Under the pieces are notes generated by a model, which made no database searches, was not told the origin of the DNA, and saw only the letters and a program-made list of their open reading frames with translations. The position numbers and the translations under genes were made by a program. Below, one piece after another: positions 602 through 60,269 of a stretch of 64,000 nucleotides of DNA. Source of the DNA: Bacteroidaceae bacterium (GTDB lineage Bacteria; Bacteroidota; Bacteroidia; Bacteroidales; Bacteroidaceae); the NCBI GenBank assembly GCA_024401215.1, contig JAKSLL010000012.1, forward strand, positions 1-64,000. Direction: 5' to 3'. The stretch's first letter is position 1. Each line of letters starts with the position of its first letter.

Positions 602-3600
602 ATGAATGAAAATATGGATTTAAAAAATATGGACATGAAGCATAGAATCATACAGATTGTTCAAAGGAGCATTTTTTGCGCCACTCTGCTCTTCTCTTGC
701 GGAGTTGCTATGGGTCAGACAAGGAAGAATGTCAACTCATGGGACGCTATCAACAATGAATTTAAAGACAACGCCAACTGTGTGCTTACGCTCACTCAAA
801 ATATTGAGCATAGCAAGCGCACTCTTATTGGAAGCATTATCTCAGATGGATATACTGTAACCCAGAAAGGAAATATTGTAATTGACGGTGCAAATCAGTA
901 TTCCATCACAATAAACACAAGAGCGACAAGCAGCACCCACAGCGGACTTATCTCCACAATGGCAGATAATGCCTCTCTCACTCTGCGCAACATAACAATA
1001 TACTTGAACTGCAACATATCATCCACTTCAGACAACATTGGAGTCATTGTTGACAACATGGGAAGTGGCTCTCAGCTGACACTTGAGAATGTGACCATCA
1101 AGTCAACAGGAGCAAAGAGAGATGTCAATGCCACCAACAATACTGGCGGAGTGGTTGGTAATGCACCTGCCAACTCAAGCATCACCCTCAGCAATGTTAC
1201 AATAGATAATTTTGATGTCGCCAGCAGAAGTCTTTTGGGCATTCGTGGCGATTATGCTGGAGGACTTGTGGGCAAGGCTGACGGCACTCTGTCAATTACC
1301 AACTGCAGCGTCGGTCAGAACATGACTGTCAATGGAAGAAATTATATCGGCGGACTTGTGGGCAGCTGTGCCACAGCCGTAAATTTCAATGGAATAAACC
1401 TCAACGGAATAACTGTTGAAGGAAGCGAAACGTGTGTCGGAGGATTCATAGGACTGGCATCTTCAACACTCAGCTTAACAAATTGTAGCATAGCAAACGC
1501 AAGCATCAAAGCAACAGGCGATAAGGTCGGCGGCTTTGCAGGAGAGTCAACCGGTAAGGTTACATTCAGCACTTGCAACGCCACCTCAACAACCGTGGAT
1601 GGCGCATCAAACAGAATCGGAGGATTCATAGGACGAGGCAGCGGAACAATCAGCGCAACCGACTGCAATGCCCTGCAGATGACCGTCAAAGGTTCTGGAA
1701 ACTCAAACAACAAAACCCGTGTGGGAGGATTTGTAGGCACTACAGGCGGCCGATTCACAGCAACAAACTGCAAATTCACAGGAAGCGTAACACAGCCAAA
1801 TGTCAGCACATCAACCAGCGAAAGCGACCCAGTAGGACGCATCGGAGGATTCATCGGCCAGGCTTATGGTGTGACATTCAGAAACTGCCAGGTGGGCGAA
1901 GCCAGCACAATGGCAACAATACAATCCAGAGGACGACGCATCGGAGGTTATGTCGGCACAACGGAAGGCGCTAACACTCTAGCATTCACCAACTGCAAGG
2001 TATATGCCAACATCAGCAACGACAACACATCATATCGCGTAGGAGGTTTCGTTGGATATCTCACAGCGGGAACATCATTCGATAAGGACTGCCTCTACTC
2101 AGGCGGCAACATAACAGGAAGTGCAGACATTGCAGCCTATGTGGGCAAGGCAGAGAATGTCAGCGAAGTGGCATTCAACGGCGCAAAGATAAAGGACGGA
2201 TTGACAATCACTTGCAATAGCGACAAAGCCGGAGGTTACATGGGATATGCAATAGGCACTACAATGACTATCAAAGATGTTGCGGTCAACAACTTAACAA
2301 TCAATGGAAAAACCAGCTCAGGAGTCCTCATCGGCGTTGCCGAGGGTGAAGGAGTGGTGACAGTAAGCAACGCGGCCGTCACTAACGGAAGGATTACATC
2401 AAGTGGTGAGCAGTCAGGCATTGTAATCGGATATTCGACAGCAAAAACGCTCGCCATCGAAAATGTCAGCATAACAAACGCATCAGTCAGCGGAAACAAA
2501 AATAATGGAGGCGTTGCAGGCAAGCTGGAAGGAGCCGAGAACAGTGTATATATAAATAATGTGAAAGTACAGAACTCAACAATCAGCGTTGACGGCTCAA
2601 GCAATAAAGACTACAACAACATCGGCGGTTTTGTGGGATTGTCAAACACAAACTTGACCATTCAGGAATGTGAAATGTCATCAGGTAACGTGACAGCCAC
2701 CAAGTCGCAGTCAGCAGGTGGACTCATAGGTGCCATAGAAGGACAAGTCATCACAAGCATCTACAAATGTACATCATCCGCCAAGATTGACACTGGCATA
2801 GGATATGCTGGCGGCATTATCGGATACGATGGCCATCAAGGTACAAACTCGCTCACACAGATTATCAGCTGTAGCAACTCTGGCAATGTTGACTGCCAAG
2901 AAGCAAGATTAACTTACGGTGGCGTCTTTAATAGAACAAATTACGAATCTGAACATTCAGGTGCTGGCGGCATCATAGGTTCCATAAGGCTTGGTGGAGC
3001 TGTTAGCATTGTCGATTGCAGCAATAGCGGTGCTATACACAATTACAACAGGCAGGAGACAAACAACAGCAACAGAGGTGCAGGTGGCATACTCGGTTAT
3101 GCCTTCGATAATAGCACAGCCACAACAATAAATATTGCTAACTGTTCTAACACAGGCTCAATCACAGGCGATGCTGGATTAAGAAACAACATAATGTGCT
3201 ATACTGCAGGTATTGTCGGTTATGTGAATGGCAATAACGCAAGAGTAACAATCAGCGAGTCAAGCAACCTCGGCAATGTGACAGGCTCCTCTGCTGACAT
3301 CACAGCGGGAATTATCGCATACGCCAACAATAAGACAAATATTGAATGGTGCTACAACCGTGGACAGGTAAGAAGCGGAAGTGCCGTAGCATACGGCATT
3401 GCAGCAAAGAGTGTTAGCGGAAACGTCAGCTACAGCTATAATACTGACTATGTAGGCACCAATACTCTTTTCGCGCCAAACAAAGACGCACAGAAGCACA
3501 ACTATCAGCTTCTGCCAAACGCCAACACACAATCCGACACAAAGCTCAGCTCTCTTGATGCCTCATACTTCAGCAGCGGACATGTGGCATACGCACTCGA

Positions 3601-4951
3601 GATGTATCGCATGACAGAACTGGCTAAACAAAGCCTTGAACCTGCAGAGGTGCATTACATTCAGGATCTCGCGGCAAGCGACAACTACCCTTCTTTAGCA
3701 AAGGAGAAGAAGACGGTGGGCGGCACAGAATGCTTCGCTGTCGATGCTACAGGAACATGGAGCATAAAAGACGGAGGCAAATACATACGCGAGCACGTTG
3801 TTTATGCAAACACCCACAACGAGGATGCCGACACCTACACGGCAGATGTGGCAAAGACAACCAACAGTCAATGCCTCACATACTCACAGTCATCATACTA
3901 CAGCAACATAAAACTTGACGGCTCAATTGTGAAGAAGGGCAATACAAAAATTGTGATTGGCAATAAGCTCAATAACTACATAGAAGCTGTGTCGGGAGCT
4001 GTTGACCCAACAACGGTAGTGAATAACACACTCTTCGCCATCGGCACATTCGCCAATGGAGTGATGAACACCACGTCATACCGAGGAGGCACAATCTCAC
4101 TCACCGACCCTAATGTCATGGGCAATTCGTCAAGATCAAGATGTGTGCCTTACAATTTCTACATTCCTAACGATGTGACAGCTAGCAACTTAAACTATGT
4201 ACGTAGCGTATCAAAGGGTTACTTCACACTCACCATCCCATTTGCTGTAGGCAGAGTGACCAGCAACGGAGCAGATGTAACGAGCAAGGTGAAGTTCGGC
4301 AAACTCAACAGATATGATGAAGAAAATACAGATGTTGATTTCGTCTTCAAGACTATTACTGAGTGGGGCGGCAGCGTGCCAGCAGGAGCATACCTCTGCG
4401 AATACATAGGCGAAGGCGATGCAGTGATAAGCATGGTGAGCAAGGATAATAAATTGACAAAATCAGGATGGTGCCCTGTTGAGTATGGAGGCGTGAACAG
4501 CACAAACGACGACCACTTTAAAGATTGCTATATTAATACATACAAGGGCGGTGACGATGTTGCATTGTGCGGCTACACCTCTCGCCACATTTCAAACTTT
4601 GAAAGTGGCGACGGCACAAAAGTGTGGGCAGGATTCTACTACTTCGGCAGCGACGACAGATTCTGCGGCCCTGCAACAAGAGGCGGTTCATGGGTGGCAC
4701 CTTTCCGCACACTCCTCTTCTTCAGCGACTATGTTGGTCCAGCAAGTTTAGAGGTGAAGGTGAGAGCATTCTCTGAAGACGGAGAGGTGACAGAGGTCAA
4801 TGCAAGCATGTTTGATGAAAACAATACGCTTGTCAATGTATTCACTCTACAAGGAACAAAGGTGAGAAGTGGCGTGCGCTATGGCGAAGCACTCGAGGGA
4901 CTTGCTCCAGGCATCTATGTGGTTGGCGGCAAGAAAATAATTAAAAGATAA
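602..4951 (+). CDS. Giant GLUG-repeat surface protein with T9SS-like C-terminus
   Basis: This 1449-aa protein has an N-terminal hydrophobic signal segment (about residues 20-40). A long array follows, from about residue 130 to 1000, of ~35-50-residue units containing GGF(V/I)G, GGLVG or GGIIGY, alternating with 'xxxNC' strands. This is the GLUG pattern, which generally forms a beta-helix on exported adhesin-like proteins. A non-repetitive region (~1000-1400) precedes a short terminal segment with LQGTKVRSG, LAPGIYVV and KKIIKR, typical of a type IX sorting domain. I infer an exported, surface-attached adhesin or glycan-binding protein; the ligand is unknown. A good promoter lies 60 bp upstream. 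Several in-frame Met codons exist in the first 12 residues, so the exact start is uncertain. Confidence 0.8.
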   Translation: MNENMDLKNMDMKHRIIQIVQRSIFCATLLFSCGVAMGQTRKNVNSWDAINNEFKDNANCVLTLTQNIEHSKRTLIGSIISDGYTVTQKGNIVIDGANQYSITINTRATSSTHSGLISTMADNASLTLRNITIYLNCNISSTSDNIGVIVDNMGSGSQLTLENVTIKSTGAKRDVNATNNTGGVVGNAPANSSITLSNVTIDNFDVASRSLLGIRGDYAGGLVGKADGTLSITNCSVGQNMTVNGRNYIGGLVGSCATAVNFNGINLNGITVEGSETCVGGFIGLASSTLSLTNCSIANASIKATGDKVGGFAGESTGKVTFSTCNATSTTVDGASNRIGGFIGRGSGTISATDCNALQMTVKGSGNSNNKTRVGGFVGTTGGRFTATNCKFTGSVTQPNVSTSTSESDPVGRIGGFIGQAYGVTFRNCQVGEASTMATIQSRGRRIGGYVGTTEGANTLAFTNCKVYANISNDNTSYRVGGFVGYLTAGTSFDKDCLYSGGNITGSADIAAYVGKAENVSEVAFNGAKIKDGLTITCNSDKAGGYMGYAIGTTMTIKDVAVNNLTINGKTSSGVLIGVAEGEGVVTVSNAAVTNGRITSSGEQSGIVIGYSTAKTLAIENVSITNASVSGNKNNGGVAGKLEGAENSVYINNVKVQNSTISVDGSSNKDYNNIGGFVGLSNTNLTIQECEMSSGNVTATKSQSAGGLIGAIEGQVITSIYKCTSSAKIDTGIGYAGGIIGYDGHQGTNSLTQIISCSNSGNVDCQEARLTYGGVFNRTNYESEHSGAGGIIGSIRLGGAVSIVDCSNSGAIHNYNRQETNNSNRGAGGILGYAFDNSTATTINIANCSNTGSITGDAGLRNNIMCYTAGIVGYVNGNNARVTISESSNLGNVTGSSADITAGIIAYANNKTNIEWCYNRGQVRSGSAVAYGIAAKSVSGNVSYSYNTDYVGTNTLFAPNKDAQKHNYQLLPNANTQSDTKLSSLDASYFSSGHVAYALEMYRMTELAKQSLEPAEVHYIQDLAASDNYPSLAKEKKTVGGTECFAVDATGTWSIKDGGKYIREHVVYANTHNEDADTYTADVAKTTNSQCLTYSQSSYYSNIKLDGSIVKKGNTKIVIGNKLNNYIEAVSGAVDPTTVVNNTLFAIGTFANGVMNTTSYRGGTISLTDPNVMGNSSRSRCVPYNFYIPNDVTASNLNYVRSVSKGYFTLTIPFAVGRVTSNGADVTSKVKFGKLNRYDEENTDVDFVFKTITEWGGSVPAGAYLCEYIGEGDAVISMVSKDNKLTKSGWCPVEYGGVNSTNDDHFKDCYINTYKGGDDVALCGYTSRHISNFESGDGTKVWAGFYYFGSDDRFCGPATRGGSWVAPFRTLLFFSDYVGPASLEVKVRAFSEDGEVTEVNASMFDENNTLVNVFTLQGTKVRSGVRYGEALEGLAPGIYVVGGKKIIKR

Positions 4952-31841: not shown

Positions 31842-31933
31842 TGTTACAAGTGTAACATGCGGTGTGTTACAAGTGTAACACGCTGTGTGTTGCACATGTT
31901 ACAGCGAGCATGTTACATTTGTTACAACGCAGC
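31842..31933. repeat. Four 16-bp palindromic sites at exact 23-bp spacing
   Basis: Sites start at 31842, 31865, 31888 and 31911. The first two are TGTTACAAGTGTAACA, the third TGTTGCACATGTTACA, and the fourth TGTTACATTTGTTACA, which is direct rather than inverted. Each is followed by a 7-bp G/C-rich spacer. A fifth half site, TGTTACA, is at 31818. The regular spacing (about two helical turns) points to cooperative binding of a dimeric regulator. It lies 300 bp upstream of the fimbrial promoter and 76 bp upstream of the LytTR-side promoter. Confidence 0.7.
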
Positions 31934-50293: not shown

Positions 50294-51349
50294 TTATTGT
50301 TCTTGACAAACCAATCTGCGCTCAAGTGCTATCTTCTTTGCTCCACCACGAGGACCGGCAATGAAGAAAGCACTTGCCTTGTATTGTCCAAGTGCAGAAA
50401 TGAACGCACGTCGGATGCGAGCACATTTTTCGTTAATTGAATTGTTGGTTGGATCCGTCACATCGTCAATACTCTTCTGCATTGAAGCTGTTGTTCTATA
50501 GTTCATTAGCGAACGATATATTTCCATCAGTTCCTCGCGATAATCTGGGAGAAAAGAGAAGTTTATTCCTTCGGGATGGCGGAGAAATAGCATATAAACA
50601 GCTTTGTCAAGGGGCGAAAGGCGAATCTCTTGTTCTGTGGGATTGCCATTTTTTGTTATGAAGAACTTTCCACGTTTTGAGATGTACAAACCCATTTCAT
50701 CTGAATCTGTGCACACGGCAACTTTGATGTCGTTGCGATTCATACCCATCTTCATGAGTTTTGATTCGTACTCTCTGATGTATGCTTCCAGCTGCATTAC
50801 CTTTTGGCGCAGTTCTGCAATAACATCATTACGCTCAGCCTCAATAGCCGATTCCCTCTCGTAACTCAATGCCGCTGTCTTGTCGCGTGAGTCCATATAC
50901 AACAAGACATCATTGAGCGTAGAAAGCAACCCATGGCGATCCACCTCAAATTGGATAAAACGATGATAACCAGAAGTGTCTTCGTCATCATATATGAATA
51001 TAGATGGCCTGAGATTGTCTGCCAAAACCTGCGGAAGAAGATATTGCCTGAAGTTGAATTTATCGACCAATTCCGACTCTATATCATGACGTTCTTCATC
51101 AGAGAAAAACTCCCAAAACTCAGGACGTTTCAGCATCTCTATTATGAGCGTACCATAGCTCTCTGCATATCCTTCAGGCACATTCAGAAGCCCACTGATG
51201 AAATCCTTATAATAGTCGATGCGCCATCTCTCAACCTTGATGGTGTGTGCGCCATCCACAAAGATTATCTCGTCAGGATAGGGAGTGTAGGGTAAATCCT
51301 TCTTTACCCTTACACTTACTCCCAATTCATTGATATTTCTCATAATCAC
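50294..51349 (-). CDS. Unrecognised 351-aa protein, probably with a frameshifted C-terminus
   Basis: I recognise no family. The protein is cytosolic. It has an acidic, aromatic N-terminal half (SEELVDKFNFRQYLLPQVL-like region, 'FIQFEVDRHGLLSTLND'), a coiled coil about residues 165-215 (ESAIEAERNDVIAELRQKVM), then 'ISKRGKFFITKNG' and 'RLSPLDKAVYMLFLRHPEG', which could be a winged-helix-like or nucleotide-signalling segment. The end changes abruptly after GGAKKI. Skipping one base near 50328 gives a smoother end (HLSADWFVKNNKIML ... PMHR) and a TAA at 50245, 8 nt before the next gene. It is second in a unit headed by the operator at 52018-52066. Confidence 0.6.
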   Translation of the reverse strand: MIMRNINELGVSVRVKKDLPYTPYPDEIIFVDGAHTIKVERWRIDYYKDFISGLLNVPEGYAESYGTLIIEMLKRPEFWEFFSDEERHDIESELVDKFNFRQYLLPQVLADNLRPSIFIYDDEDTSGYHRFIQFEVDRHGLLSTLNDVLLYMDSRDKTAALSYERESAIEAERNDVIAELRQKVMQLEAYIREYESKLMKMGMNRNDIKVAVCTDSDEMGLYISKRGKFFITKNGNPTEQEIRLSPLDKAVYMLFLRHPEGINFSFLPDYREELMEIYRSLMNYRTTASMQKSIDDVTDPTNNSINEKCARIRRAFISALGQYKASAFFIAGPRGGAKKIALERRLVCQEQ

Positions 51350-51392: not shown

Positions 51393-51941
51393 TTACTCTG
51401 GATAATTGCCCTCAATGTATGCCTTTATCAAACTTGCATGAGATAAAGGTTTCTTTGGATCCCAGACATCGGAATTTGTATCATAATCAAGCAGCACAAC
51501 AGCCTTCTTTTGAGAAATGATACGAATAAGCTTGACAAGGTCTGCACATCGATTCTCCAGCACCCACTTGTAAGATGGCAAATAAATTAGTTTGCGGGCT
51601 TCAATGTAGCCAAGCAGTTCTTCGCTATTCACACCTTTCTGATGGCCCAGGCATTTGCCGAACTTGCGAGTGGTGCGCTTGATGTTCTTCATGTTCTTCA
51701 CTCCAAACATCTTACTATCTATGCCTTCAGATTCAAACACCTTGAGTCCCTGCCAAATACCTTCCACGCTTGCAGACGTTTTCATAGGCGAGAACGGAAC
51801 AGGAATGCCACCGTTTGGGTAAAAAGGACTCAACTTGACAAACTGGTCTGTAGCATGGCTTGTCACATCGATAATGTAAGCATCAGCATACTGCTTCTTG
51901 ATTGTTTCAATGCTTTTCTTCTTTGATTCAATAACTATCAT
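51393..51941 (-). CDS. Unrecognised 182-aa protein of the accessory island
   Basis: The start at 51941 follows a conserved promoter-operator module by ~77 nt. The product begins 'MIVIESKKKSIETIKKQYADAYIIDVTSHATDQFVKLSPFYP' in content, then has 'GGIPVPFSP', 'GYIEARKLIYLPSYKW' and 'ISQKKAVVLLDYDTNSDV'. The repeated short hydrophobic strands and conserved Asp/Lys positions suggest an alpha/beta fold in the cytoplasm. It may belong to a DUF found in Bacteroidales (DUF6939 is possible but unverified). There is no membrane segment. The next gene (351 aa) starts 43 nt downstream, so both probably form one unit. Confidence 0.6.
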   Translation of the reverse strand: MIVIESKKKSIETIKKQYADAYIIDVTSHATDQFVKLSPFYPNGGIPVPFSPMKTSASVEGIWQGLKVFESEGIDSKMFGVKNMKNIKRTTRKFGKCLGHQKGVNSEELLGYIEARKLIYLPSYKWVLENRCADLVKLIRIISQKKAVVLLDYDTNSDVWDPKKPLSHASLIKAYIEGNYPE

Positions 51942-52017: not shown

Positions 52018-52066
52018 CAAAGTTACGAAAATTATGCTCAACTTGTATGACTTTACAAGGTTGTAA
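52018..52066 (-). promoter_or_regulatory. Shared promoter-operator module 1
   Basis: On the minus strand, palindrome TTACAACCTTGTAA (52066-52053) is followed after exactly 27 bp by TAACTTTG (52025-52018) and then CAGCAG. An extra TACAA half site lies in the spacer. It drives the 182-aa gene. Confidence 0.75.
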
Positions 52067-52070
52067 GGTT

Positions 52071-52673
52071 TTATGGCTCGTACATGAAATCAAACATAAG
52101 CTGCCTGTCGTCATGCACTACCTCCTTACGTTTTCTTGGTTTTGGAGGAGCCTTTTCTTTCTTCTTCCTTACGTATGGCAGGAGTTCGAAAATCCTATCT
52201 TTCACAACATCTGAAAGCCAACATCCACATTCTTCATCAAAACGTTTTGCAGCTCTATAGTCACGATTAAGTCTTTTCAAAGCTTCTTTATATCTACCAA
52301 GTTGCACATATATATCTATAAGTGTTATAGGGTAAATAGAATCCATAATCTCAAGACTTTTCTCCTCGTAGTACAATGCTGTGTTGGGATCACCTTGCTC
52401 CAAATATATACGAGCAATTTCCTCCAATAACCACTTATCCCCATTATCTGCCATTTCGCACAACTTTTGCAACGCTTCTGCATGACCTTGTTCTGCGGCT
52501 TTGAGAAGTAAATTCCGAGCTTTTGCATAATTTTTTGTAACATCTTCACCTATCAGGTATTTGATGCCCAGCTCGTATTGAGCATGGGCATCTCCACATT
52601 CAACCAGATTGCAGAGGTCAATATATTCATCTGGTATGATTACAGGTTCGAAAGATTCATCAATACAATTCAT
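52071..52673 (-). CDS. Sel1-like / TPR repeat protein
   Basis: This 200-aa protein contains Sel1-type helical repeats: 'AHAQYELGIKYLIGEDVTKNYAKARNLLLKAAEQGHAEALQKLCEMA' in content from about residue 34, then TPR-like 'LEEIARIYLEQGDPNTALYYEEKSLEI' and 'IDIYVQLGRYKEALKRLNRDY'. A basic tail (KKKEKAPPKPRKRKEV) ends the chain. Such repeats mediate protein-protein binding. There is no signal peptide, so it is cytoplasmic. It lies 42 nt after the 149-aa gene, in the unit headed by operator module 2. The partner and role are unknown. Confidence 0.7.
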   Translation of the reverse strand: MNCIDESFEPVIIPDEYIDLCNLVECGDAHAQYELGIKYLIGEDVTKNYAKARNLLLKAAEQGHAEALQKLCEMADNGDKWLLEEIARIYLEQGDPNTALYYEEKSLEIMDSIYPITLIDIYVQLGRYKEALKRLNRDYRAAKRFDEECGCWLSDVVKDRIFELLPYVRKKKEKAPPKPRKRKEVVHDDRQLMFDFMYEP

Positions 52674-52715
52674 AGAAGCTCGGTATTTACAATTAAGATT
52701 ATTTTTGATTGCTAC

Positions 52716-53162
52716 TTACTTATTGCGTATATAAATATACTTAGGATACTCACCCAATACGAATAGAGTGACAGGACAAATCCAGATGTTGTGATAAAAT
52801 CCCTCAAGTCCACACACCTCGTAATTGGAACCTCCAAAGAGAGAAGCATCAATCTGATCGCAGCGGAAGAAACGCTCATCCTCATCATACTTCGCCAAAG
52901 GCTTATCTGACTTAACCACCTCAACCTCCACACGATTGCCATCCTTCAAGAGGAAATCGAGAAGCAAATCCGAACCTGCCACCATAGCGAGATTAGCATG
53001 CGCTCCCGTCCATTCAGGCAAATCTATATACCAACCGCCTTCCTCTTCCTTCACGAACGCAAGTTGATAGATATTGTTCTTGCTTGCAGCCTCTTTTGCT
53101 ACGCCACTGATGTACTGACCAATAACACCAGGATTCTTCACAATGTTTGAAATTCTACTCAT
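52716..53162 (-). CDS. Unrecognised 148-aa protein (DUF6717-like is possible)
   Basis: I use the Met at 53162 (MSRISNIVKNPGVIGQY). The longer frame to 53246 would begin upstream of the -7 box of operator module 2, so it is excluded. The product has 'GGWYIDLPEWTGAHANLAMVAGSDLLLDFL' in content, a pattern like the short 'WYIDLPxW...NL.MVAG' family, and then 'RCDQIDASLFGGSNYEVCGLEG' and 'YHNIWICPVTLFVLGEYP'. It is a cytoplasmic protein of unknown function. It is first in a unit with the Sel1-like gene. Confidence 0.6.
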   Translation of the reverse strand: MSRISNIVKNPGVIGQYISGVAKEAASKNNIYQLAFVKEEEGGWYIDLPEWTGAHANLAMVAGSDLLLDFLLKDGNRVEVEVVKSDKPLAKYDEDERFFRCDQIDASLFGGSNYEVCGLEGFYHNIWICPVTLFVLGEYPKYIYIRNK

Positions 53163-53213
53163 AACTTCTAACAAATTTTTAATTAAACAATACTTCGTTT
53201 TTGAAATCTGCTG

Positions 53214-53262
53214 CAAAGTTACGACAAGAGAATCCTGTTTGTACACTTTTACAAGGTTGTAA
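53214..53262 (-). promoter_or_regulatory. Shared promoter-operator module 2
   Basis: TTACAACCTTGTAA (53262-53249), exactly 27 bp, TAACTTTG (53221-53214), then CAGCAG. A TACAA half site lies in the spacer. It is positioned ~50 nt before the ATG at 53162. Confidence 0.75.
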
Positions 53263-53629
53263 GGTCAGAGGAGTAAAATCTTGTTATGTTCCTAATCCAT
53301 TAGCGCGTAACCTTTCAAGAATCATTTGCGATTCTGTACTCCCTTGCTCTGCGGCTTTCTCGTACAAATGCTAAGGACGCAAGCATTAATCTAATTCAAC
53401 TTTCGCAAGCATGCAACTTGCTCGTTTTGAGGAGTTAAAGTGGAGTTAAAGAGGAGTTATCGCTTCGCTCGGAGTTAAAGAGACGTTTGCCATGTCAGAC
53501 ATTTGTCACTTTAACTACCCTTTAACTTCTCTTTAACTACCCTTTAACTACACAACAAGTGGAGCGAAACTTGTATTAATCTAATTATACATCTTTTCCT
53601 TGTCATATTTTTGGGGGATATCCATATTA
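53263..53629. other. Gene-free stretch containing repeat copy F
   Basis: Apart from the interspersed repeat at 53412-53576, only AT-rich sequence is seen. No gene is supported, and no promoter was identified outside the repeat. Confidence 0.4.
53412..53576 (-). repeat. Interspersed repeat family, copy F
   Basis: Reverse orientation relative to copy A and the longest copy (165 bp). GCAACTTGCTCG, GGAGTTAAAG units, the GTTATCGCTTCGCTCGGAGT core, GACATTTGTC and CAAGTGGAGCGAAACTTGTA are all present. It has four CTTTAACTNC units on one side where copy A has two, showing unit-number variation. Confidence 0.7.
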
Positions 53630-55273
53630 TCAAACAAGTGGTTCGTCACAATGAAGTGCATAATCTATTTCGAAGCATTCATTGATGACCTTTGCTTCCT
53701 GTTGCCTTTCTGGGATGTCTGCCTTTCTACGATTTATTACCTCTTTCAATATGGATTCATCCAGCCCTCCATTAGGATAATATGCTGGATTATCCGTCAT
53801 TGTCTTATAGCCCTCGCCTTTATATGCCAACAATTTAATAATCTCTATGAAATCGCTAGGCGTAACAAAATCTCTGGAATCACATCGGCTTGAAGCAAAA
53901 GTGTATTCTCGCTCACTATCTTTTATTATTTTGCGAATCCTATTTTCCTTGCTTTCGTATAGAGCCTTATCAAGACGCATCCTGCCTGTATGAGTTAGAC
54001 GAGTGTGAGTTGCCATATATTGAAATGCGTTGACAGCTGCTTCCCATTGATTGTGTATATTCACACCCCCATTTAACGCATCGTTCTCTATGTCATGACC
54101 GAAAAATGGAATATCTAATAGGTAGGTCGCTAACTTGTCATCATTATTTTTTAGAAGGAGAACTTCTTGAGAAGCACAATATAAACGTTCAAACAACCAA
54201 TCTGAATCTTCCGGCAATGGAGTGTTCTGATGCAACGCTATATCATGCACTTCACATTCTTCTACTTCACCCGTATCTTCGTAAACAAAATCCTCATGCC
54301 AAACTTCTTTGACTGCCAACGCCAAAATTCTGCCTACATAATCCTTATAATTGTCTTTATTCAATACCACCTTCTCTGTTTCAATACCGAAAGCCCTATA
54401 AAGGTCTGATTGAGTATGGATGCCAATCATCGGGAATAGTACAGAAATAGGGAGCCATTCGTTGTTTATCATCACTAAATTATCACGGAAATGCCATTCC
54501 GCTCCGTCAGTACGCATTACGAGTTCTATGCCATGTTTGCTATTTGATTTCTTATACAAGCCTTCGTCCGAACCCAATACGGATTTCATCTCAGAAAAGA
54601 TCTTACCATCATAATGTGGGTGATTAGGAAAATATGTATCCCATAGCAGCTTTGGTAAATTCCGAGAGCTTTCTCTGCAGAAATACCCATTTTCCATATT
54701 CAAGTAATAATCATCCATCCAATAAAACAAGGAGTGTGGTTGTTCTTGAAGTAGAGGTTCAACTTTTTCTAATGCAGCCTCAGCTTCTTCTTGTGTGGCG
54801 AAAAGAATAGCAGGATCAAAATACGATTCATCACTATAGTAATAGTACATAAAACTACCATCATCATAATACAAACATTTTATGTCGAATCCTGATTTGG
54901 AATGAACATCATGAGACAAAGATATAGTCCAAAATTCAAGACTATCCGCGTCCGTTTTAATATTATATTGATTCCTTACAGATTCATCCTCAACATCAAT
55001 TAGCAATTTTCCACTATCTTTGTCAAAGATTCTGTCATCATTAAATGGCAACAACAATGACCTGATTTCCTCGTGGCGAGCAACAGCCTCTTCTTTGGTG
55101 AGGAACATTCTTCCTTTTTGAAGATGAAATGAAAGATACCAGTCTGTCCAATTCACACTGTCACAATTGACCTCCTGAATTGCCCACTCGAGGTTATGGA
55201 AAATCTCTTCCACAAAAAAGGCATTGCCATCTTTGATGGTTCTTAAAATATATTCTTCTAGAGCCCTGTACAT
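53630..55273 (-). CDS. Large unrecognised protein (547 aa) of the accessory island
   Basis: No family recognised. It is acidic, rich in aromatic residues and without signal peptide or membrane segment. Two related segments, 'RMFLTKEEAVARHEEIRSLL' (~residues 55-75) and 'ILFATQEEAEAALEKVEPLL' (~175-195), show an internal duplication of a 'F-x-T-x-EEA' unit followed by similar helices. Later parts have 'WLPISVLFPMIGIHTQSDLYRAFG' and 'RLTHTGRMRLDKALYESKENRIRKI', with no catalytic signature. It is 69 nt after the zinc-ribbon gene and may belong to the unit headed by operator module 3. Regulatory or scaffold use is possible; no function is assigned. Confidence 0.6.
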   Translation of the reverse strand: MYRALEEYILRTIKDGNAFFVEEIFHNLEWAIQEVNCDSVNWTDWYLSFHLQKGRMFLTKEEAVARHEEIRSLLLPFNDDRIFDKDSGKLLIDVEDESVRNQYNIKTDADSLEFWTISLSHDVHSKSGFDIKCLYYDDGSFMYYYYSDESYFDPAILFATQEEAEAALEKVEPLLQEQPHSLFYWMDDYYLNMENGYFCRESSRNLPKLLWDTYFPNHPHYDGKIFSEMKSVLGSDEGLYKKSNSKHGIELVMRTDGAEWHFRDNLVMINNEWLPISVLFPMIGIHTQSDLYRAFGIETEKVVLNKDNYKDYVGRILALAVKEVWHEDFVYEDTGEVEECEVHDIALHQNTPLPEDSDWLFERLYCASQEVLLLKNNDDKLATYLLDIPFFGHDIENDALNGGVNIHNQWEAAVNAFQYMATHTRLTHTGRMRLDKALYESKENRIRKIIKDSEREYTFASSRCDSRDFVTPSDFIEIIKLLAYKGEGYKTMTDNPAYYPNGGLDESILKEVINRRKADIPERQQEAKVINECFEIDYALHCDEPLV

Positions 55274-55342
55274 TTTTATGTAATTTTACGTTTTATTAAG
55301 AAATTACTAGTTATTTTATTTACAAAGGAATAAGTAAACTTA

Positions 55343-55636
55343 TCAAAAGAAAGTGCCTACACATTCCCATTCTATATCTTTTGAGTCACATTTAGGGCAA
55401 TTGCTTATCTCCTCATGCACTTCAATATCCTCACTGCCACAGAACACACATTTATTTTCTTGGACAACCTTACCATCCGTCTTGGTGTATCCTCTCTGAG
55501 ATATCCGATGACAATGATTGCACACACAATGATGAAACTCTGGCAAGCCCATTGGATCAATAAGGCAATGCTCCTCCTCCATTCCTGGAGTTCTGTATCC
55601 ACACGAATTACAAGATAGTTGTAGATAGAATCCCAT
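55343..55636 (-). CDS. Double zinc-ribbon protein (97 aa)
   Basis: Four CxxC pairs are visible: CNSC (about residue 9), CNHC (~39), CVFC (~66) and CPKC (~82). Two zinc ribbons of four cysteines each are therefore likely. The rest is acidic and hydrophilic (GFYLQLSCNSCGYRTP). Small zinc-ribbon proteins often bind RNA or protein partners; no specific role can be read. It starts 5 nt after the small membrane protein's stop, so both share the module 3 promoter. Confidence 0.7.
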   Translation of the reverse strand: MGFYLQLSCNSCGYRTPGMEEEHCLIDPMGLPEFHHCVCNHCHRISQRGYTKTDGKVVQENKCVFCGSEDIEVHEEISNCPKCDSKDIEWECVGTFF

Positions 55637-55641
55637 AATGA

Positions 55642-55827
55642 CTACTTGTTTTTTCTTCTATGACTGAAAAATGCATACAATACGATAGCAATTATCACAA
55701 CAACAGCCAGTAACCCCGAGGAACCACTACCATCTCTTACAGAATAATCTCTACCATGTCTGTCATAAGCAAGCAAAGGAAGCACATTCAGCACTAACAA
55801 TGCGAAAGAAATAAAATGTCGTCTCAT
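55642..55827 (-). CDS. Small membrane protein (61 aa)
   Basis: There is an N-terminal hydrophobic segment, ISFALLVLNVLPLLAY, which could be a signal peptide, and a second one, LLAVVVIIAIVLYAFF, near the basic C-terminus (SHRRKNK). A Gly/Ser/Asp hinge lies between them. This suggests either one cleaved signal and one anchor, or two TM helices. It is the first gene in the unit of operator module 3, followed by the zinc-ribbon gene. It may localise that unit to the membrane; the function is unknown. Confidence 0.6.
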   Translation of the reverse strand: MRRHFISFALLVLNVLPLLAYDRHGRDYSVRDGSGSSGLLAVVVIIAIVLYAFFSHRRKNK

Positions 55828-55855
55828 AATTTAAATTCAGATTTGATTTGTTGTG

Positions 55856-55904
55856 CAAAGGTACGACTATCCCACGCATGTTGTACATCTTTACAAGGTT
55901 GTAA
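55856..55904 (-). promoter_or_regulatory. Shared promoter-operator module 3
   Basis: TTACAACCTTGTAA (55904-55891), exactly 27 bp, TACCTTTG (55863-55856). The spacer contains GTACAA near its palindrome-proximal end, as in modules 1 and 2. Confidence 0.75.
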
Positions 55905-55948
55905 AGTCCTTATTTTACATCAAAGAACACATCAAGGTCGAACTATGT

Positions 55949-56272
55949 TTATGCAGGAAATATATTGCTAAGCAACTCCAGCACCACCGATGCAGGTAAT
56001 GACAGAGTATTTCCACTGGCAAAGTTATATCTAATATCCTCACCTTTACTTGCCAAGTCATTCAGCAATTCTATCTCCCAATCCTCTGGTCCGTTAGATA
56101 ATTTTTCATATATCCAAAGCACATCAGAAGCTTCCAACTCGATAATCTTGCCATCAATCGAATACACCAAACTTTCATTGTTCTGTGCCTTCTCCTTAAG
56201 GAAGCTCTGAACAAACTGATTAAGTCCTTGATTGTATATGGCACTCAGGTTCTGTATTCTTATATTATTCAT
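55949..56272 (-). CDS. Small protein partner of the zeta-like kinase (107 aa)
   Basis: Its start overlaps the zeta-like gene's stop by 8 nt, so translation is probably coupled. The product is cytoplasmic and helical, with 'YNQGLNQFVQSFLKEKAQ', 'IIELEASDVLWIYEKLS' and 'ASVVLELLSNIFPA'. It has no HTH motif, so it does not look like a self-regulating DNA-binding antitoxin. The pairing could be toxin-antitoxin (as in epsilon-zeta) or an effector with a helper; neither can be shown here. No family was recognised. Confidence 0.55.
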   Translation of the reverse strand: MNNIRIQNLSAIYNQGLNQFVQSFLKEKAQNNESLVYSIDGKIIELEASDVLWIYEKLSNGPEDWEIELLNDLASKGEDIRYNFASGNTLSLPASVVLELLSNIFPA

Positions 56273-56858
56273 ATCCTTTCAATTTTGTGTAAATCTCGTT
56301 ATCGTAAATCTCTCTGCCACCCTCAGCAATCTGCATCGGCACAAACCCACTATTGTTGTCTATATGCCAATAATCAACAATAGGTATATATAGATTGAAA
56401 AGGTTGTGGATACCTCGCTCGTATCTGCGATGAATAATATCGGTAGGAATGTTATGCCCTCCAGACTTTACTCGAAGAGCGACACGCGCTACTGCCAGAT
56501 CAGACGATTCAAGCCAATAGAAAAACAATGCCACCTTGAATCCCTTGGCATGAGCCTTATGAACAAGGGTATAGAAATTGCGTGTAGATAATGTCGTTTC
56601 TATACAGAAACTCTCATTATGTTCGAGCTGTTCATCTATCCTCTGCAACATGCACCTTCCTGCAGCAAAGGCAGCCGACTCCACATTTTCCGGACACATC
56701 TCTCTGGCTATTTCATCCGCATTGATGAAAAGCGGAACATTAAACTGTTCAGATAATCGATTGCGGAAAGCAGTCGTCTTTCCTGCACCATTACAGCCTG
56801 CAACGATATAAAGAATCTTGCCCGACTGTTCATTTAAGTTAATGCTGATATTGTTCAT
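56265..56858 (-). CDS. Zeta-toxin-like P-loop kinase
   Basis: This 197-aa protein has Walker A 'GCNGAGKTT' (residues 22-30). 'FINADEIAREM' and 'FCIETTLSTRNF' follow: the Asp/Glu-containing positions that in zeta toxins and related small-molecule kinases position substrate. Later come 'KGFKVALFFYWLES', 'ARVALRVKSGGHNIPTDIIHRRYERG' with a lid-like basic helix, and 'YIPIVDYWHIDNN'. Zeta toxins phosphorylate UDP-N-acetylglucosamine, but Bacteroidales homologs of this short form are uncharacterised. It is followed with 8-nt overlap by a 107-aa gene. It lies downstream of operator module 4 and the helicase stub. Confidence 0.75.
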   Translation of the reverse strand: MNNISINLNEQSGKILYIVAGCNGAGKTTAFRNRLSEQFNVPLFINADEIAREMCPENVESAAFAAGRCMLQRIDEQLEHNESFCIETTLSTRNFYTLVHKAHAKGFKVALFFYWLESSDLAVARVALRVKSGGHNIPTDIIHRRYERGIHNLFNLYIPIVDYWHIDNNSGFVPMQIAEGGREIYDNEIYTKLKGYE

Positions 56859-56932
56859 GATACTATCTTTTTTTCATTTAGAAAGTATATAACTGCTAAA
56901 GAAATTACATATTGCCTTAGGAAGAGCGTTCG

Positions 56933-57070
56933 TCAATCCCACATACATACTGTGTCTTCATATATTTCTGTTGACTTTCCTGTTCCCACCTTTTCTGACA
57001 GGAATATGTTAGCATTGGTATTTTTGACCAAATCAAACGCTATGTCTATTTGTTTGTTAGTTCTTGGCAT
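56933..57070 (-). pseudogene. Truncated helicase stub (Walker A only)
   Basis: From ATG 57070 the frame reads MPRTNKQIDIAFDLV, NTNANIFLSEKVGTGKST, then ends after a few unrelated residues. This is the beginning of the PIF1/UvrD-like superfamily 1 helicases of Bacteroidales, whose N-terminus has '...NIFLTGKAGTGKTTFL'. Only ~35 of several hundred residues remain. The longer frame starting at 57136 lies upstream of the -7 box and is not used. Its operator module is intact. Confidence 0.55.
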
Positions 57071-57114
57071 TGTATTATTGTTTGTAGATAAGTTCCGAGT
57101 GTGAAAAACCGCTG

Positions 57115-57163
57115 CAAAATTACAAAGATATTGCATTGTTAGGACAGCATTACAAGGTTGTAG
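57115..57163 (-). promoter_or_regulatory. Shared promoter-operator module 4
   Basis: Palindrome with one change, CTACAACCTTGTAA (57163-57150), exactly 27 bp, TAATTTTG (57122-57115), then CAGCGG. The TACAA half site in the spacer has decayed to TAACAA. It precedes the helicase stub and may feed the zeta-like pair. Confidence 0.65.
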
Positions 57164-57654: not shown

Positions 57655-58437
57655 TCAGTCGTCCAATCCTTTTAACGCCATGATGAACCTTGGGCGTGTA
57701 TCATATTTATTTGAATTTCACTATGCAATCAATGCAGATTGGTTTGCCGCTTTGAACATCAATGAATATGTTGGCTGGATGCATGTCTTCGAGGATGTGG
57801 CGATCACTCACAAAGCTCTCCTTGAAATCATCCTCGTTGAGGCGTAACCCCTTGGAGGTGACGTATTCGTAGATTTCCTCCTTTGTGGCAAGGCGTTCGC
57901 ATTGTATGTAGGGTTGTGTTAGAATGGTACGGAACAAACCTACAGCGTCACGCGAGAAACCTATCACCTGCATGGGGCTCTCGGGGAAGAAGTAGTTATG
58001 AAGGGCTATTGCATCAAATGCTTTCTGCAAAGTAGAGTAGATGGAAGTGCGCTCTTTTATCACACACGGTTCTCCTGATTGGTAATAGACTTTAGCCTCT
58101 GCTCCTTGTGCTATCTTCGGTCCAAATGACTCTATGATTTGTTGTTCTGAATCCTCAAACCAAAAGCCAGCAGCTTGTGCCCATTGCTCTACAAACTTCT
58201 CCTGCGTTTCATCTATCTGCCAGTTTGGTACCGTTGCTTTGCTCTTTCCAGCATCTCCACTTGTGTCAAGGCTTGCTCTCGCGTAACTGACGATGGTCTC
58301 CGCCCCGATGAGCACCTTACCCGCACTACAGAGTCCTGCATGCTCTGGCGTATTGAATCTATCAAAGTTGGTGTTGCCATTGTAAATATTGCTTATGTAA
58401 TTATCTATCAGTTGTAATGTATGTGGCGTAAAGCCAT
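57655..58437 (-). pseudogene. Putative polyvalent protein kinase-domain gene with frameshifts at both ends
   Basis: The central ~200-residue frame is intact: 'VLIGAETIVSYARASLDTSG', 'EKFVEQWAQAAGFWFEDSE', 'KIAQGAEAKVYYQSGEPCVIKE', 'HILEDMHPANIFIDVQSGKP' and 'ICIDCI'. The AKVYY-xx-CVIKE and DMHPANIF parts correspond to the ATP-binding Lys and catalytic-type Asp/Asn loops of kinase-like 'polyvalent' proteins of mobile elements. The ATG at 58437 is one T short of reading MAFTPHTLQLIDNY. Near the end, one extra A converts FNKYDTRPRFIMALKGLDD into FK and a stop at 57707. The extended product would be ~260 aa. Unrepaired, only a GTG-started fragment (58315-57707) is open. Confidence 0.55.
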
Positions 58438-59457: not shown

Positions 59458-59757
59458 ATGATTCAAAACCTAATGAACCAGGCAAGAATGGGTACTATCA
59501 CAATTACTGTGAACCCACAAGATCTGCACGACATGATTGTTCTGGCAGTGCAGGAGGCTGTTGGCCAATCAAAGAAAGATGATAAGCAGCCGCATCGCAC
59601 CTACCTCACTTCTGACGAGGTGATGGAGCATTTGAACATCAGCCGCTCCACACTTGACCGTAAGAGAAAGATGGGCATTCTCGTGCCTGTCAAGATAGGC
59701 AAGCTGAACCGCTACCGCATTGAGGATGTTGAACTGTTCGAGCGTCTTGGAGAATAA
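59458..59757 (+). CDS. Helix-turn-helix DNA-binding protein of the excisionase/HTH_17 type
   Basis: This 99-aa protein has an N-terminal helical part (QNLMNQARMGTITITVNP, DLHDMIVLAVQEAVGQ), then 'TYLTSDEVMEHLNISRSTLDRKRKMGILVPVKIGKLNRYRIEDVE' in content. This is the MerR-like winged-helix used by excisionases and by Bacteroidales mobile-element regulators. Such proteins bind DNA near attachment sites or steer element genes. No integrase or att site is visible. It probably belongs to a former element that also included the polyvalent-type genes, though it is transcribed in the other direction. Confidence 0.8.
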   Translation: MIQNLMNQARMGTITITVNPQDLHDMIVLAVQEAVGQSKKDDKQPHRTYLTSDEVMEHLNISRSTLDRKRKMGILVPVKIGKLNRYRIEDVELFERLGE

Positions 59758-60191: not shown

Positions 60192-60196
60192 TAAAG

Positions 60197-60269
60197 TGAT
60201 CCGCTTGGGGCTCGAACCCAAGACCCCAACATTAAAAGTGTTGTGCTCTACCTACTGAGCTAGCGGATC
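60197..60269 (-). tRNA. tRNA-Lys (UUU)
   Basis: The 73-nt cloverleaf on the minus strand has acceptor GATCCGC/GCGGATC, D-arm GCTCAGTAGGTAGAGC, and anticodon loop CTTTTAA (anticodon TTT) with stem AACAC/GTGTT-like pairing. The T-arm is TTGGGTTCGAGCCCCAA, with discriminator A and no encoded CCA. It reads AAA/AAG lysine codons. Confidence 0.95.

What the first reader, a model, noticed from the sequence alone, without database searches (positions are those of the whole stretch)
52018..57163. Four accessory transcription units share one 49-bp promoter-operator with fixed geometry
Modules at 52018-52066, 53214-53262, 55856-55904 and 57115-57163 each have TTACAACCTTGTAA (one base off in the last), exactly 27 bp, then TA(A/C)(C/T)TTTG, in three cases with a further TACAA half site in the spacer. 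No TTTG -33 box is present, so the palindrome may be an activator site or a repressor site replacing it. The genes they head are unrelated in sequence (unknowns, Sel1, zinc ribbon, zeta-like kinase, helicase stub), and coding sequence has decayed while the modules stayed intact. This looks like one regulon, such as stress or phage response, built by recruiting genes behind a common control site.
Basis: seen in the sequence. Interest (0 to 1): 0.82.

Follow-up and report, generated by a model that had tools for sequence, protein, structure and literature searches.

The report
Island regulon with fixed-distance promoter operators
Four neighbouring accessory gene units in a Prevotella-like bacterium each start at a promoter with the same paired DNA control site at one exact distance, and the same kind of site recurs beside one uncharacterised gene family in related bacteria, which makes that family the prime candidate for an unknown regulator of their defence-like gene islands.

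Summary
In detail: four co-oriented 49-bp modules (TTACAACCTTGTAA-N27-TAnnTTTG; one base off in the last) lie in 5.1 kb, with no further copy found in this genome; spacers have diverged. A scan of 84,980 species with the module gave 13 stretches; two, both Bacteroidota, hold a gene of one family, and in one (L038, exact N27) the module directly heads it. That family, here called RHPEGI, is window gene 50294-51349, second gene behind module 1. Loci with RHPEGI genes carry CAAGnCTTG palindromes 30, 37 or 48 bp upstream of TAnnTTTG: 54 cases against 10 at all other distances. The geometry held in 17 loci outside the family and on two named plasmids. In 201 genomes 50 of 86 such sites lie within 10 kb of a RHPEGI gene. 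Best reading: a self-contained island regulon, each unit with its own operator, probably activated by the RHPEGI protein, a weakly supported winged-helix candidate. Binding, activation and signal are inferred. The link is not exclusive: 36 of 86 sites lack a nearby RHPEGI gene, 17 expected by chance.

The parts
52018..52066 (-). Module 1: operator TTACAACCTTGTAA (52053-52066), 27-bp spacer with TACAA half site, -7 box TAACTTTG (52018-52025); heads DUF6939 and the RHPEGI gene
53214..53262 (-). Module 2: exact palindrome, N27, TAACTTTG; heads DUF6717 and Sel1 genes
55856..55904 (-). Module 3: palindrome extended to CTTTACAACCTTGTAAAG, N27, TACCTTTG; heads the 61-aa, zinc-ribbon-like and 547-aa genes
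57115..57163 (-). Module 4: CTACAACCTTGTAA, N27, TAATTTTG; heads the helicase stub, zeta-like kinase and 107-aa genes
50294..51349 (-). Candidate regulator ('RHPEGI' protein, my name; 351 aa; conserved C-terminal ~110 residues, winged-helix-like), second gene of the module 1 unit, 43 bp after DUF6939
51393..51941 (-). DUF6939 gene (Pfam E 7.4e-75; sub-cut-off match to the DarT1-associated NADAR antitoxin family, E 2.4e-4); no DarT family match among the array genes scanned
52071..52673 (-). Sel1/TPR repeat gene, second gene of the module 2 unit
52716..53162 (-). DUF6717 gene, first gene of the module 2 unit (likely ATG at 53162, by eye)
53630..55273 (-). 547-aa gene, no Pfam or NCBIfam match; module 3 unit
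55343..55636 (-). 97-aa CxxC-rich (zinc-ribbon-like by eye) gene, no Pfam match; module 3 unit
55642..55827 (-). 61-aa gene with a hydrophobic segment (by eye), first gene of the module 3 unit
55949..56272 (-). 107-aa gene, no Pfam or NCBIfam match; module 4 unit
56265..56858 (-). Zeta-toxin/AAA_33-like P-loop kinase gene; module 4 unit
56936..57070 (-). Helicase stub (45 codons) related to the N-terminus of a 690-aa PIF1-like helicase, directly behind module 4

Best explanation
The four modules are the promoters of one self-contained island regulon. Each is a Bacteroidales -7 box (TAnnTTTG) with a dimer operator, core CAA-CC-TTG, whose end lies 30 bp upstream of the box (centre about -45 from the start of transcription, by recalled Bacteroides numbering). 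The operator belongs to a wider class (CAAGnCTTG or CAAnnTTG) found at 30, 37 or 48 bp from the -7 box beside genes with the RHPEGI domain. I propose that the RHPEGI protein (50294-51349), whose C-terminus resembles an OmpR-type winged helix, binds the palindrome as a dimer and recruits RNA polymerase; at 30 bp it replaces the weak or missing -33 contact, at 37/48 bp it helps a promoter that more often keeps a -33-like TTG. It feeds back on itself through module 1 and switches on the whole island when its N-terminal part senses a stress. Shown: modules, geometry, co-localisation, gene order. Inferred: binding, activation, signal, island function.
For: (1) Blind retrieval: the DNA pattern of the module, scanned over 84,980 species, gave 13 stretches; 2 hold a RHPEGI gene (L036, L038; the other 11 do not), and in L038 the exact N27 module directly heads it. 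(2) Distances: in 48 loci (45 with a RHPEGI gene) CAAGnCTTG lies 29-31, 37-38 or 48-49 bp from TAnnTTTG in 18, 22 and 14 cases, against 10 over the other 114 distances of 0-120; CAAnnTTG 8 at 29-31 against 34 elsewhere. The window sites are at 30. (3) Held-out, 17 loci outside the family: CAAnnTTG 9 at 29-31 against 20 over the 114 other distances; CAAGnCTTG 5 at 29-31 and 2 at 37-38 against 6. (4) 201 genomes: 31 sites at 30/31 (reversed-pattern control 11) and 55 at 37/38 (control 6); 18 and 32 of them within 10 kb of a RHPEGI gene, with RHPEGI found in 52 of the 201. (5) One palindrome serves divergent units with both boxes at class distances: L130, L132, L143, L147, L149, and ftsZ / RHPEGI on a Segatella hominis plasmid. 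(6) RHPEGI genes themselves lie behind such sites: L127, L130, L132, L147, L149, L150, L163, L255, L038. (7) L036 combines a RHPEGI gene with CAACCTTG, CAAGGTTG and CAAGGCTTG sites at 29-30. (8) L255 repeats the window's architecture. (9) TTG at -33 in 10 of 31 non-redundant 30-class, 18 of 29 37-class and 5 of 11 48-class sites; TTTG in 7, 11 and 3. (10) hhalign with OmpR-type domains: P 0.0027.
Against: 36 of 86 genome-wide sites have no RHPEGI gene within 10 kb (17 expected from the controls); G156 (99% complete) has convincing sites (one at 30, one shared palindrome at 37/49) but no RHPEGI match. The 50 near sites are not independent: five same-genus genomes share one locus, and G142 gives several contigs. 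Ten of 45 RHPEGI loci and 5 of 17 held-out loci show no class site by these patterns (my counts). A looser pattern, TTRCAANNTTGYAA at N25-29, found 7 further sites in 6 of 300 other family genomes (control 0), none with a RHPEGI domain in the ~3 kb held. The 7-bp step from 30 to 37 is not a whole helical turn. Discovery and held-out loci were mostly fetched by RHPEGI, so they test geometry, not association.
Confidence: 0.64

Rival explanations
1. Same regulon and same regulator, but the protein represses: the palindrome-bound dimer blocks RNA polymerase and releases it on a signal.
For: Some regulators named beside defence islands are repressors (RptR and CapS in the titles and abstract starts; the same listing also names activators). 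The site at 30 lies next to the place of the -33 box.
Against: The sites lie upstream of the promoter core, at a few discrete distances; a repressor would more often overlap the -7 box or the start. The window promoters lack TTTG at -33, so they look weak without help.
Confidence: 0.2
2. The palindrome is read by another, unlinked regulator; the RHPEGI protein is only a frequent passenger or a target in these islands.
For: Sites in genomes without a detected RHPEGI gene; no demonstrated DNA-binding fold.
Against: The module alone retrieved two RHPEGI loci out of 13 stretches from 84,980 species. Sites are concentrated next to RHPEGI genes (50 of 86 within 10 kb, 47 within 3 kb). One search used one protein as query and may have missed divergent copies or copies at contig ends (L263 ends behind a VWA-like gene).
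Confidence: 0.1
3. The modules are recombination or cassette-boundary sequences of a rAID-like array that also carry a promoter.
For: Co-oriented, mostly short genes, fairly AT-rich (array G+C 39.2%, window 43.7%), separated by a conserved intergenic motif, as rAID is described (passages of PMC12247911).
Against: No tyrosine recombinase match among the window ORFs scanned with Pfam, nor recognised by eye in the ORF lists. The motif is tied to a -7 box at fixed distance and stands between divergent genes in relatives, which a cassette boundary does not explain. The rAID intergenic motif itself could not be read (paper not held).
Confidence: 0.04
4. Promoter copies spread by recent duplication, with no dedicated regulator.
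For: Modules 1 and 2 also share 14 of the first 16 bases after the -7 box (0.88).
Against: Spacers are only 0.41-0.56 identical while the palindrome is 0.93-1.00 identical, so the palindrome is probably kept by selection; same geometry in other families with other flanks.
Confidence: 0.02

Closest known systems
BrxR / CapW / RptR / CapK-CapS type local regulators of defence islands (titles and abstract starts in the listing; details recalled)
   Same: A regulator encoded beside the genes it controls, acting at the island's own promoters.
   Different: No WYL or other known regulator domain was matched by the window protein. Here each of four units carries its own operator copy, and the distance classes suggest activation rather than repression. 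Function of the island not shown.
OmpR/PhoB-type winged-helix effector domains (PF00486)
   Same: Order of predicted elements by eye, and alignment of the beta sheet and first helix in register (hhalign P 0.0027).
   Different: No Pfam match, so no receiver domain seen either; operator is a palindrome rather than the direct repeats usual for OmpR/PhoB (recalled).
rAID (recombinase-associated acquired interbacterial defence)
   Same: Array of co-oriented, mostly short accessory genes with conserved intergenic motifs in Bacteroidales.
   Different: No recombinase found among the ORFs looked at; motif is a promoter-operator at fixed distance.
Bacteroidetes LexA-like SOS operators (PMC8565304, passages)
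   Same: Palindromic operators of Bacteroidetes stress genes.
   Different: GGA-N5-TCC and CTAA-N5-TTAG against CAA(N2 or GNC)TTG; no SOS gene among the array genes scanned.
CARF5 proteins of PADLOC (PDLC01904)
   Same: 8 of 47 RHPEGI domains match this model (best E 8.5e-6); for L155 the match is to its C-terminal part, positions 238-338 of 351.
   Different: The window protein itself does not match. Source paper not held.

Membership tests
Local regulon with island-encoded regulator | Same operator at several promoters of one island, rare elsewhere in the genome | tested here: met
Local regulon with island-encoded regulator | Regulator gene encoded in the island and co-occurring with the operator class | tested here: met
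   not exclusive (36 of 86 sites without a RHPEGI gene within 10 kb, 17 expected from controls)
Local regulon with island-encoded regulator | Regulator binds the operator and changes transcription | not testable with these tools
   needs EMSA or ChIP and RNA-seq
OmpR/PhoB-type winged helix (PF00486) | Profile match or matching fold | tested here: inconclusive
   no Pfam match, no PDB profile match, hhalign P 0.0027 with probability 11%, shuffles 1 of 60 local and 0 of 60 global; fold prediction off
rAID | Tyrosine recombinase upstream of the array | tested here: not met
   no match among the window ORFs scanned, none recognised by eye in the ORF lists; not every window ORF was scanned
rAID | Co-oriented short genes below 41% G+C | tested here: inconclusive
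   all array genes on minus strand; G+C 0.376-0.436, 5 of 9 genes above 0.41; two of 9 over 300 codons (351 and 547)
WYL-type defence regulators (BrxR, CapW) | WYL domain | tested here: not met
   no Pfam match for 50294-51349
Bacteroidetes LexA regulon | GGA-N5-TCC or CTAA-N5-TTAG operator | tested here: not met
   operator is TTACAACCTTGTAA; motifs from passages of PMC8565304
CARF5 (PADLOC) | Match to the CARF5 model | tested here: not met
   no match for the window protein or its domain, though 8 of 47 domains in the alignment match

The most novel reading that the evidence does not exclude
The RHPEGI domain is an undescribed Bacteroidota family of island-borne transcription activators with exchangeable partner domains (DUF1810-bearing in some, TPR-bearing in others), each reading its own flank-variant of a CAA..TTG palindrome placed at one of three permitted distances, so that toxin, ADP-ribose, VWA/kinase/phosphatase and FtsZ-like genes can be plugged in as ready-wired units.
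Probability: 0.48. Interest if true: 0.82.

Novelty: new variant of a known kind. Interest (0 to 1): 0.7.

Why it matters
How Bacteroidales switch on their many accessory and defence-like islands is, to my knowledge, little understood. A simple sequence rule (CAA..TTG palindrome 30, 37 or 48 bp from TAnnTTTG, often next to a RHPEGI gene) predicts regulator, operator and target genes in many genomes at once, names an unannotated protein family as the likely regulator, and gives a direct way to find new members of these islands, including the FtsZ-like genes carried by some of them.

Tried and rejected
Genome-wide regulon: rejected, module found only in this island. Chance: rejected (held-out test, L038). 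Of the 13 stretches, L036 and L038 hold a RHPEGI domain and the other 11 do not; these 11, among them near-identical sites in Tychonema/Microcoleus/Oscillatoriales and in Rheinheimera relatives, I take for chance. The two viral-contig pattern hits L043 and L044 hold no RHPEGI domain. A viral-contig search with the Sel1 protein found no relative; the RHPEGI protein matches no phage record and two plasmid records. SOS/LexA: motifs differ. rAID: no recombinase seen. DUF6939 and DUF6717 as regulators: not pursued; the upstream stretches of their homologues that I read often lack the module. Papers: TTACAACCTTGTAA in 0 papers; six CAAGnCTTG palindromes in 32 papers, of which 20 were listed and none by title concerns Bacteroidales regulation; no title listed names this family, and one search listed nothing. 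PMC12247911, PMC8565304 and PMC7159879 were seen as passages, those as listing only; Makarova 2020 and Ross 2019 (recalled) were not held. PDB profile search: only matches with E 0.19 or worse. PADLOC on 9 window proteins: one weak match, the zeta-like kinase to PtuA, E 0.005.

Rows dropped before counts: L198 (copy of L197) and L206 (overlaps L205) were left out of the 17 held-out loci; regions were fetched from 14 of the 16 other genomes with a RHPEGI match (not G081 and G504). Class counts were made non-redundant at 70% identity (31 of 40, 29 of 32, 11 of 15). In one search the 8-base core was listed only at chosen distances.


Full report
What is there. Four modules on the minus strand, at 52018-52066, 53214-53262, 55856-55904 and 57115-57163, consist of TTACAACCTTGTAA (CTACAA... 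in the last), exactly 27 bp, and TAnnTTTG. A search of the whole window with loose palindrome and gap finds no fifth copy. Pairwise identity is 0.93-1.00 in the palindrome, 0.41-0.56 in the spacer and about 0.3 on average outside, apart from the first 16 bases after the -7 box. So the palindrome and the -7 box are what is kept, not the stretch as a whole. Modules 1-3 have an extra TACAA in the spacer, 18 bp downstream of the first TACAA. In five same-genus relatives (L092, L093, L129, L131, L133) two whole palindromes stand in tandem at the same 18-bp step.

What the modules head. Module 1: DUF6939 (51393-51941) and, 43 bp further, a 351-aa gene (50294-51349). Module 2: DUF6717 and a Sel1 gene. 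Module 3: a 61-aa gene, a CxxC-rich gene and a 547-aa gene. Module 4: a stub related to the start of a PIF1-like helicase, then a zeta-like kinase and a 107-aa gene. Neither Pfam nor NCBIfam names the 351-aa protein (no match over a cut-off).

Where else. In this genome the module was found only here (two further 2-mismatch hits do not share the sequence). In the 100 other genomes the exact pattern is absent. A scan of 84,980 species gave 13 stretches. In two of them, and in none of the other 11, lies a gene with one conserved C-terminal domain. L036, a Bacteroidales MAG from water buffalo, has TTACAACCTTGTAA-N26-TAGTTTTG, and a gene whose C-terminus is 42% identical over 189 residues to the window's 351-aa protein. 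L038, a pond Bacteroidetes MAG, has the exact N27 module directly before such a gene (3284-4504, minus), divergent from a VWA-like gene and a DUF6717-like gene (labels by eye). I call the domain RHPEGI after its sequence; the name is mine.

The class of site. I fetched loci around RHPEGI relatives and around the DUF6939 and DUF6717 relatives: 48 loci with the window and L036, 45 of them with a RHPEGI gene. The core CAAGnCTTG occurs 128 times on both strands. Its distance to a TAnnTTTG box is 29-31 in 18, 37-38 in 22 and 48-49 in 14 cases, against 10 cases over the 114 other distances from 0 to 120. CAAnnTTG, the window's form, has 8 at 29-31 (four of them the window's own) and 34 elsewhere; CAAnTTG has none at 29-31. 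The window sites are at exactly 30. Thirty-five of the 45 RHPEGI loci have at least one class site (my count).

Held-out test. RHPEGI relatives were then sought in other families of the order (16 of 246 other genomes) and in viral contigs (3 loci). In 17 loci, CAAnnTTG is at 29-31 nine times against 20 over 114 other distances, and CAAGnCTTG is at 29-31 five times and at 37-38 twice against 6 elsewhere. Twelve of the 17 loci have a class site (my count). Two named plasmids agree. On the Segatella hominis HDD12 plasmid NZ_CP137560.1 a single palindrome serves an ftsZ-annotated gene at 37 and the RHPEGI gene KUA50_RS15640 at 49 (one further pair, at 77, in that stretch). On Prevotella sp. E2-28 plasmid NZ_CP091789.1 a site at 37 follows the RHPEGI match, which is not in the gene table shown, and heads the next gene; in the 66 kb read, class distances occur 3 times and other distances 4 times.

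Is the site tied to the RHPEGI gene? In 201 genomes of the family, sites at 30/31 number 31 (reversed-pattern control 11) and at 37/38 number 55 (control 6). Within 10 kb of a RHPEGI gene lie 18 and 32 of them, 47 of the 50 within 3 kb; RHPEGI was found in 52 of the 201 genomes. These 50 are not all independent (five same-genus genomes share one locus; G142 gives several contigs). The 13 remaining sites at 30/31 match the control. Of the 23 remaining at 37/38 more are left than the control predicts. Some of those look real, for example the shared palindrome at 37/49 in G156 and sites in G045, and no RHPEGI domain was found in the loci examined there. One (L263) ends at a contig end behind a VWA-like gene. 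A looser palindrome pattern in 301 genomes gave 10 hits, 3 of them the window's; the other 7 have no RHPEGI domain in the ~3 kb held. So the tie is strong but not exclusive, or the single-query search missed copies.

Why I think it is an activator site. The sites keep to a few distances, lie upstream of the promoter core and serve divergent promoters from one palindrome (L130, L132, L143, L147, L149). At 37 a -33-like TTG is more often kept (18 of 29 non-redundant sites) than at 30 (10 of 31), and the window has none. This looks like a bound dimer that replaces or helps the -33 contact. The step from 30 to 37 is not a full helical turn, which I cannot explain.

Why I think the RHPEGI protein reads it. 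It lies in the island and behind module 1; in relatives its gene is itself headed by the site, and in L255 a RHPEGI gene and the successive units after it each have their own site at 37, the same architecture as in the window. By eye its C-terminus has the order strand-strand-strand-helix-helix-helix-hairpin of OmpR-type domains, and hhalign puts the first half in that register with P 0.0027. One of 60 column shuffles scored higher in local mode and none in global mode. Eight of 47 RHPEGI domains match the PADLOC CARF5 model; what the matched C-terminal part does I could not read.

What the islands may do. Single-linkage families recurring in the 48 loci are FtsZ-like proteins (13 loci), DUF6939 (9), kinases (9), DUF6717 (8), a DarT-containing family (7) and a PP2C-like family (7). 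One member each of the FtsZ, DarT and kinase families was confirmed by Pfam; PP2C and VWA labels are by eye, without a Pfam match for the members scanned. RHPEGI is fused to DUF1810 in L139 and to TPR repeats in L161, L208 and L209. This resembles conflict or stress modules; the signal is unknown.

Bottom line. A local regulon of four units with a candidate self-regulating activator: the geometry and the co-localisation are well supported, binding and direction of control are inferred.

Noticed in passing
L138, L141, L149, L151, L154, L155 and others; L271:6322-7689 (Segatella hominis plasmid NZ_CP137560.1): FtsZ-like genes (Tubulin and FtsZ_C domains in the one scanned) recur in 13 of the 48 loci and several share the operator class; one is annotated ftsZ on a plasmid.
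   Followed up: partly
L255:4582-9486 (G154:C26): Parallel array in another genus: a RHPEGI gene and successive small units, each behind its own CAAGCCTTG site at distance 37; the three array proteins scanned have no Pfam match.
   Followed up: partly
L038:3284-5637 (JAIYAW010000009.1, pond Bacteroidetes MAG): Exact window module before a RHPEGI gene, divergent from a VWA-like and a DUF6717-like gene.
   Followed up: partly
window 56936-57070: Helicase stub behind module 4, related to the start of a PIF1-like helicase; the promoter now seems to serve the zeta-like kinase.
   Followed up: yes
window 51393-51941: DUF6939 resembles DarT1-associated NADAR antitoxins, but no DarT was seen among the array genes; several relatives have a DarT-family gene in the same locus.
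   Followed up: partly
window 53283-53370: Tail of a second Sel1-like gene directly upstream of module 2, apparently a remnant.
   Followed up: no
window 53430-53560: Short direct and inverted repeats built on GGAGTTAAAG / CTTTAACT in the gap before module 2.
   Followed up: no
window 31860-31922, plus strand: Unrelated strong palindrome GTGTTACAAGTGTAACAC 32 bp upstream of TACATTTG.
   Followed up: no
window 57707-58315: Kinase-PolyVal domain gene upstream of the array; with an HTH_17 gene (59458-59757) and tRNA-Lys (60196-60269) it may mark the edge of an acquired region.
   Followed up: no
L271:7818-7832: On the Segatella plasmid the RHPEGI start codon lies 4 bases after the -7 box, which suggests a leaderless or near-leaderless message.
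   Followed up: no
L142 (G000:C198): The same genome has a second RHPEGI gene, with a different operator (CTTTCGCAAGACTTGCGAAAG, distance 37) in front of an FtsZ-like gene, which suggests that the two islands are insulated from each other.
   Followed up: partly
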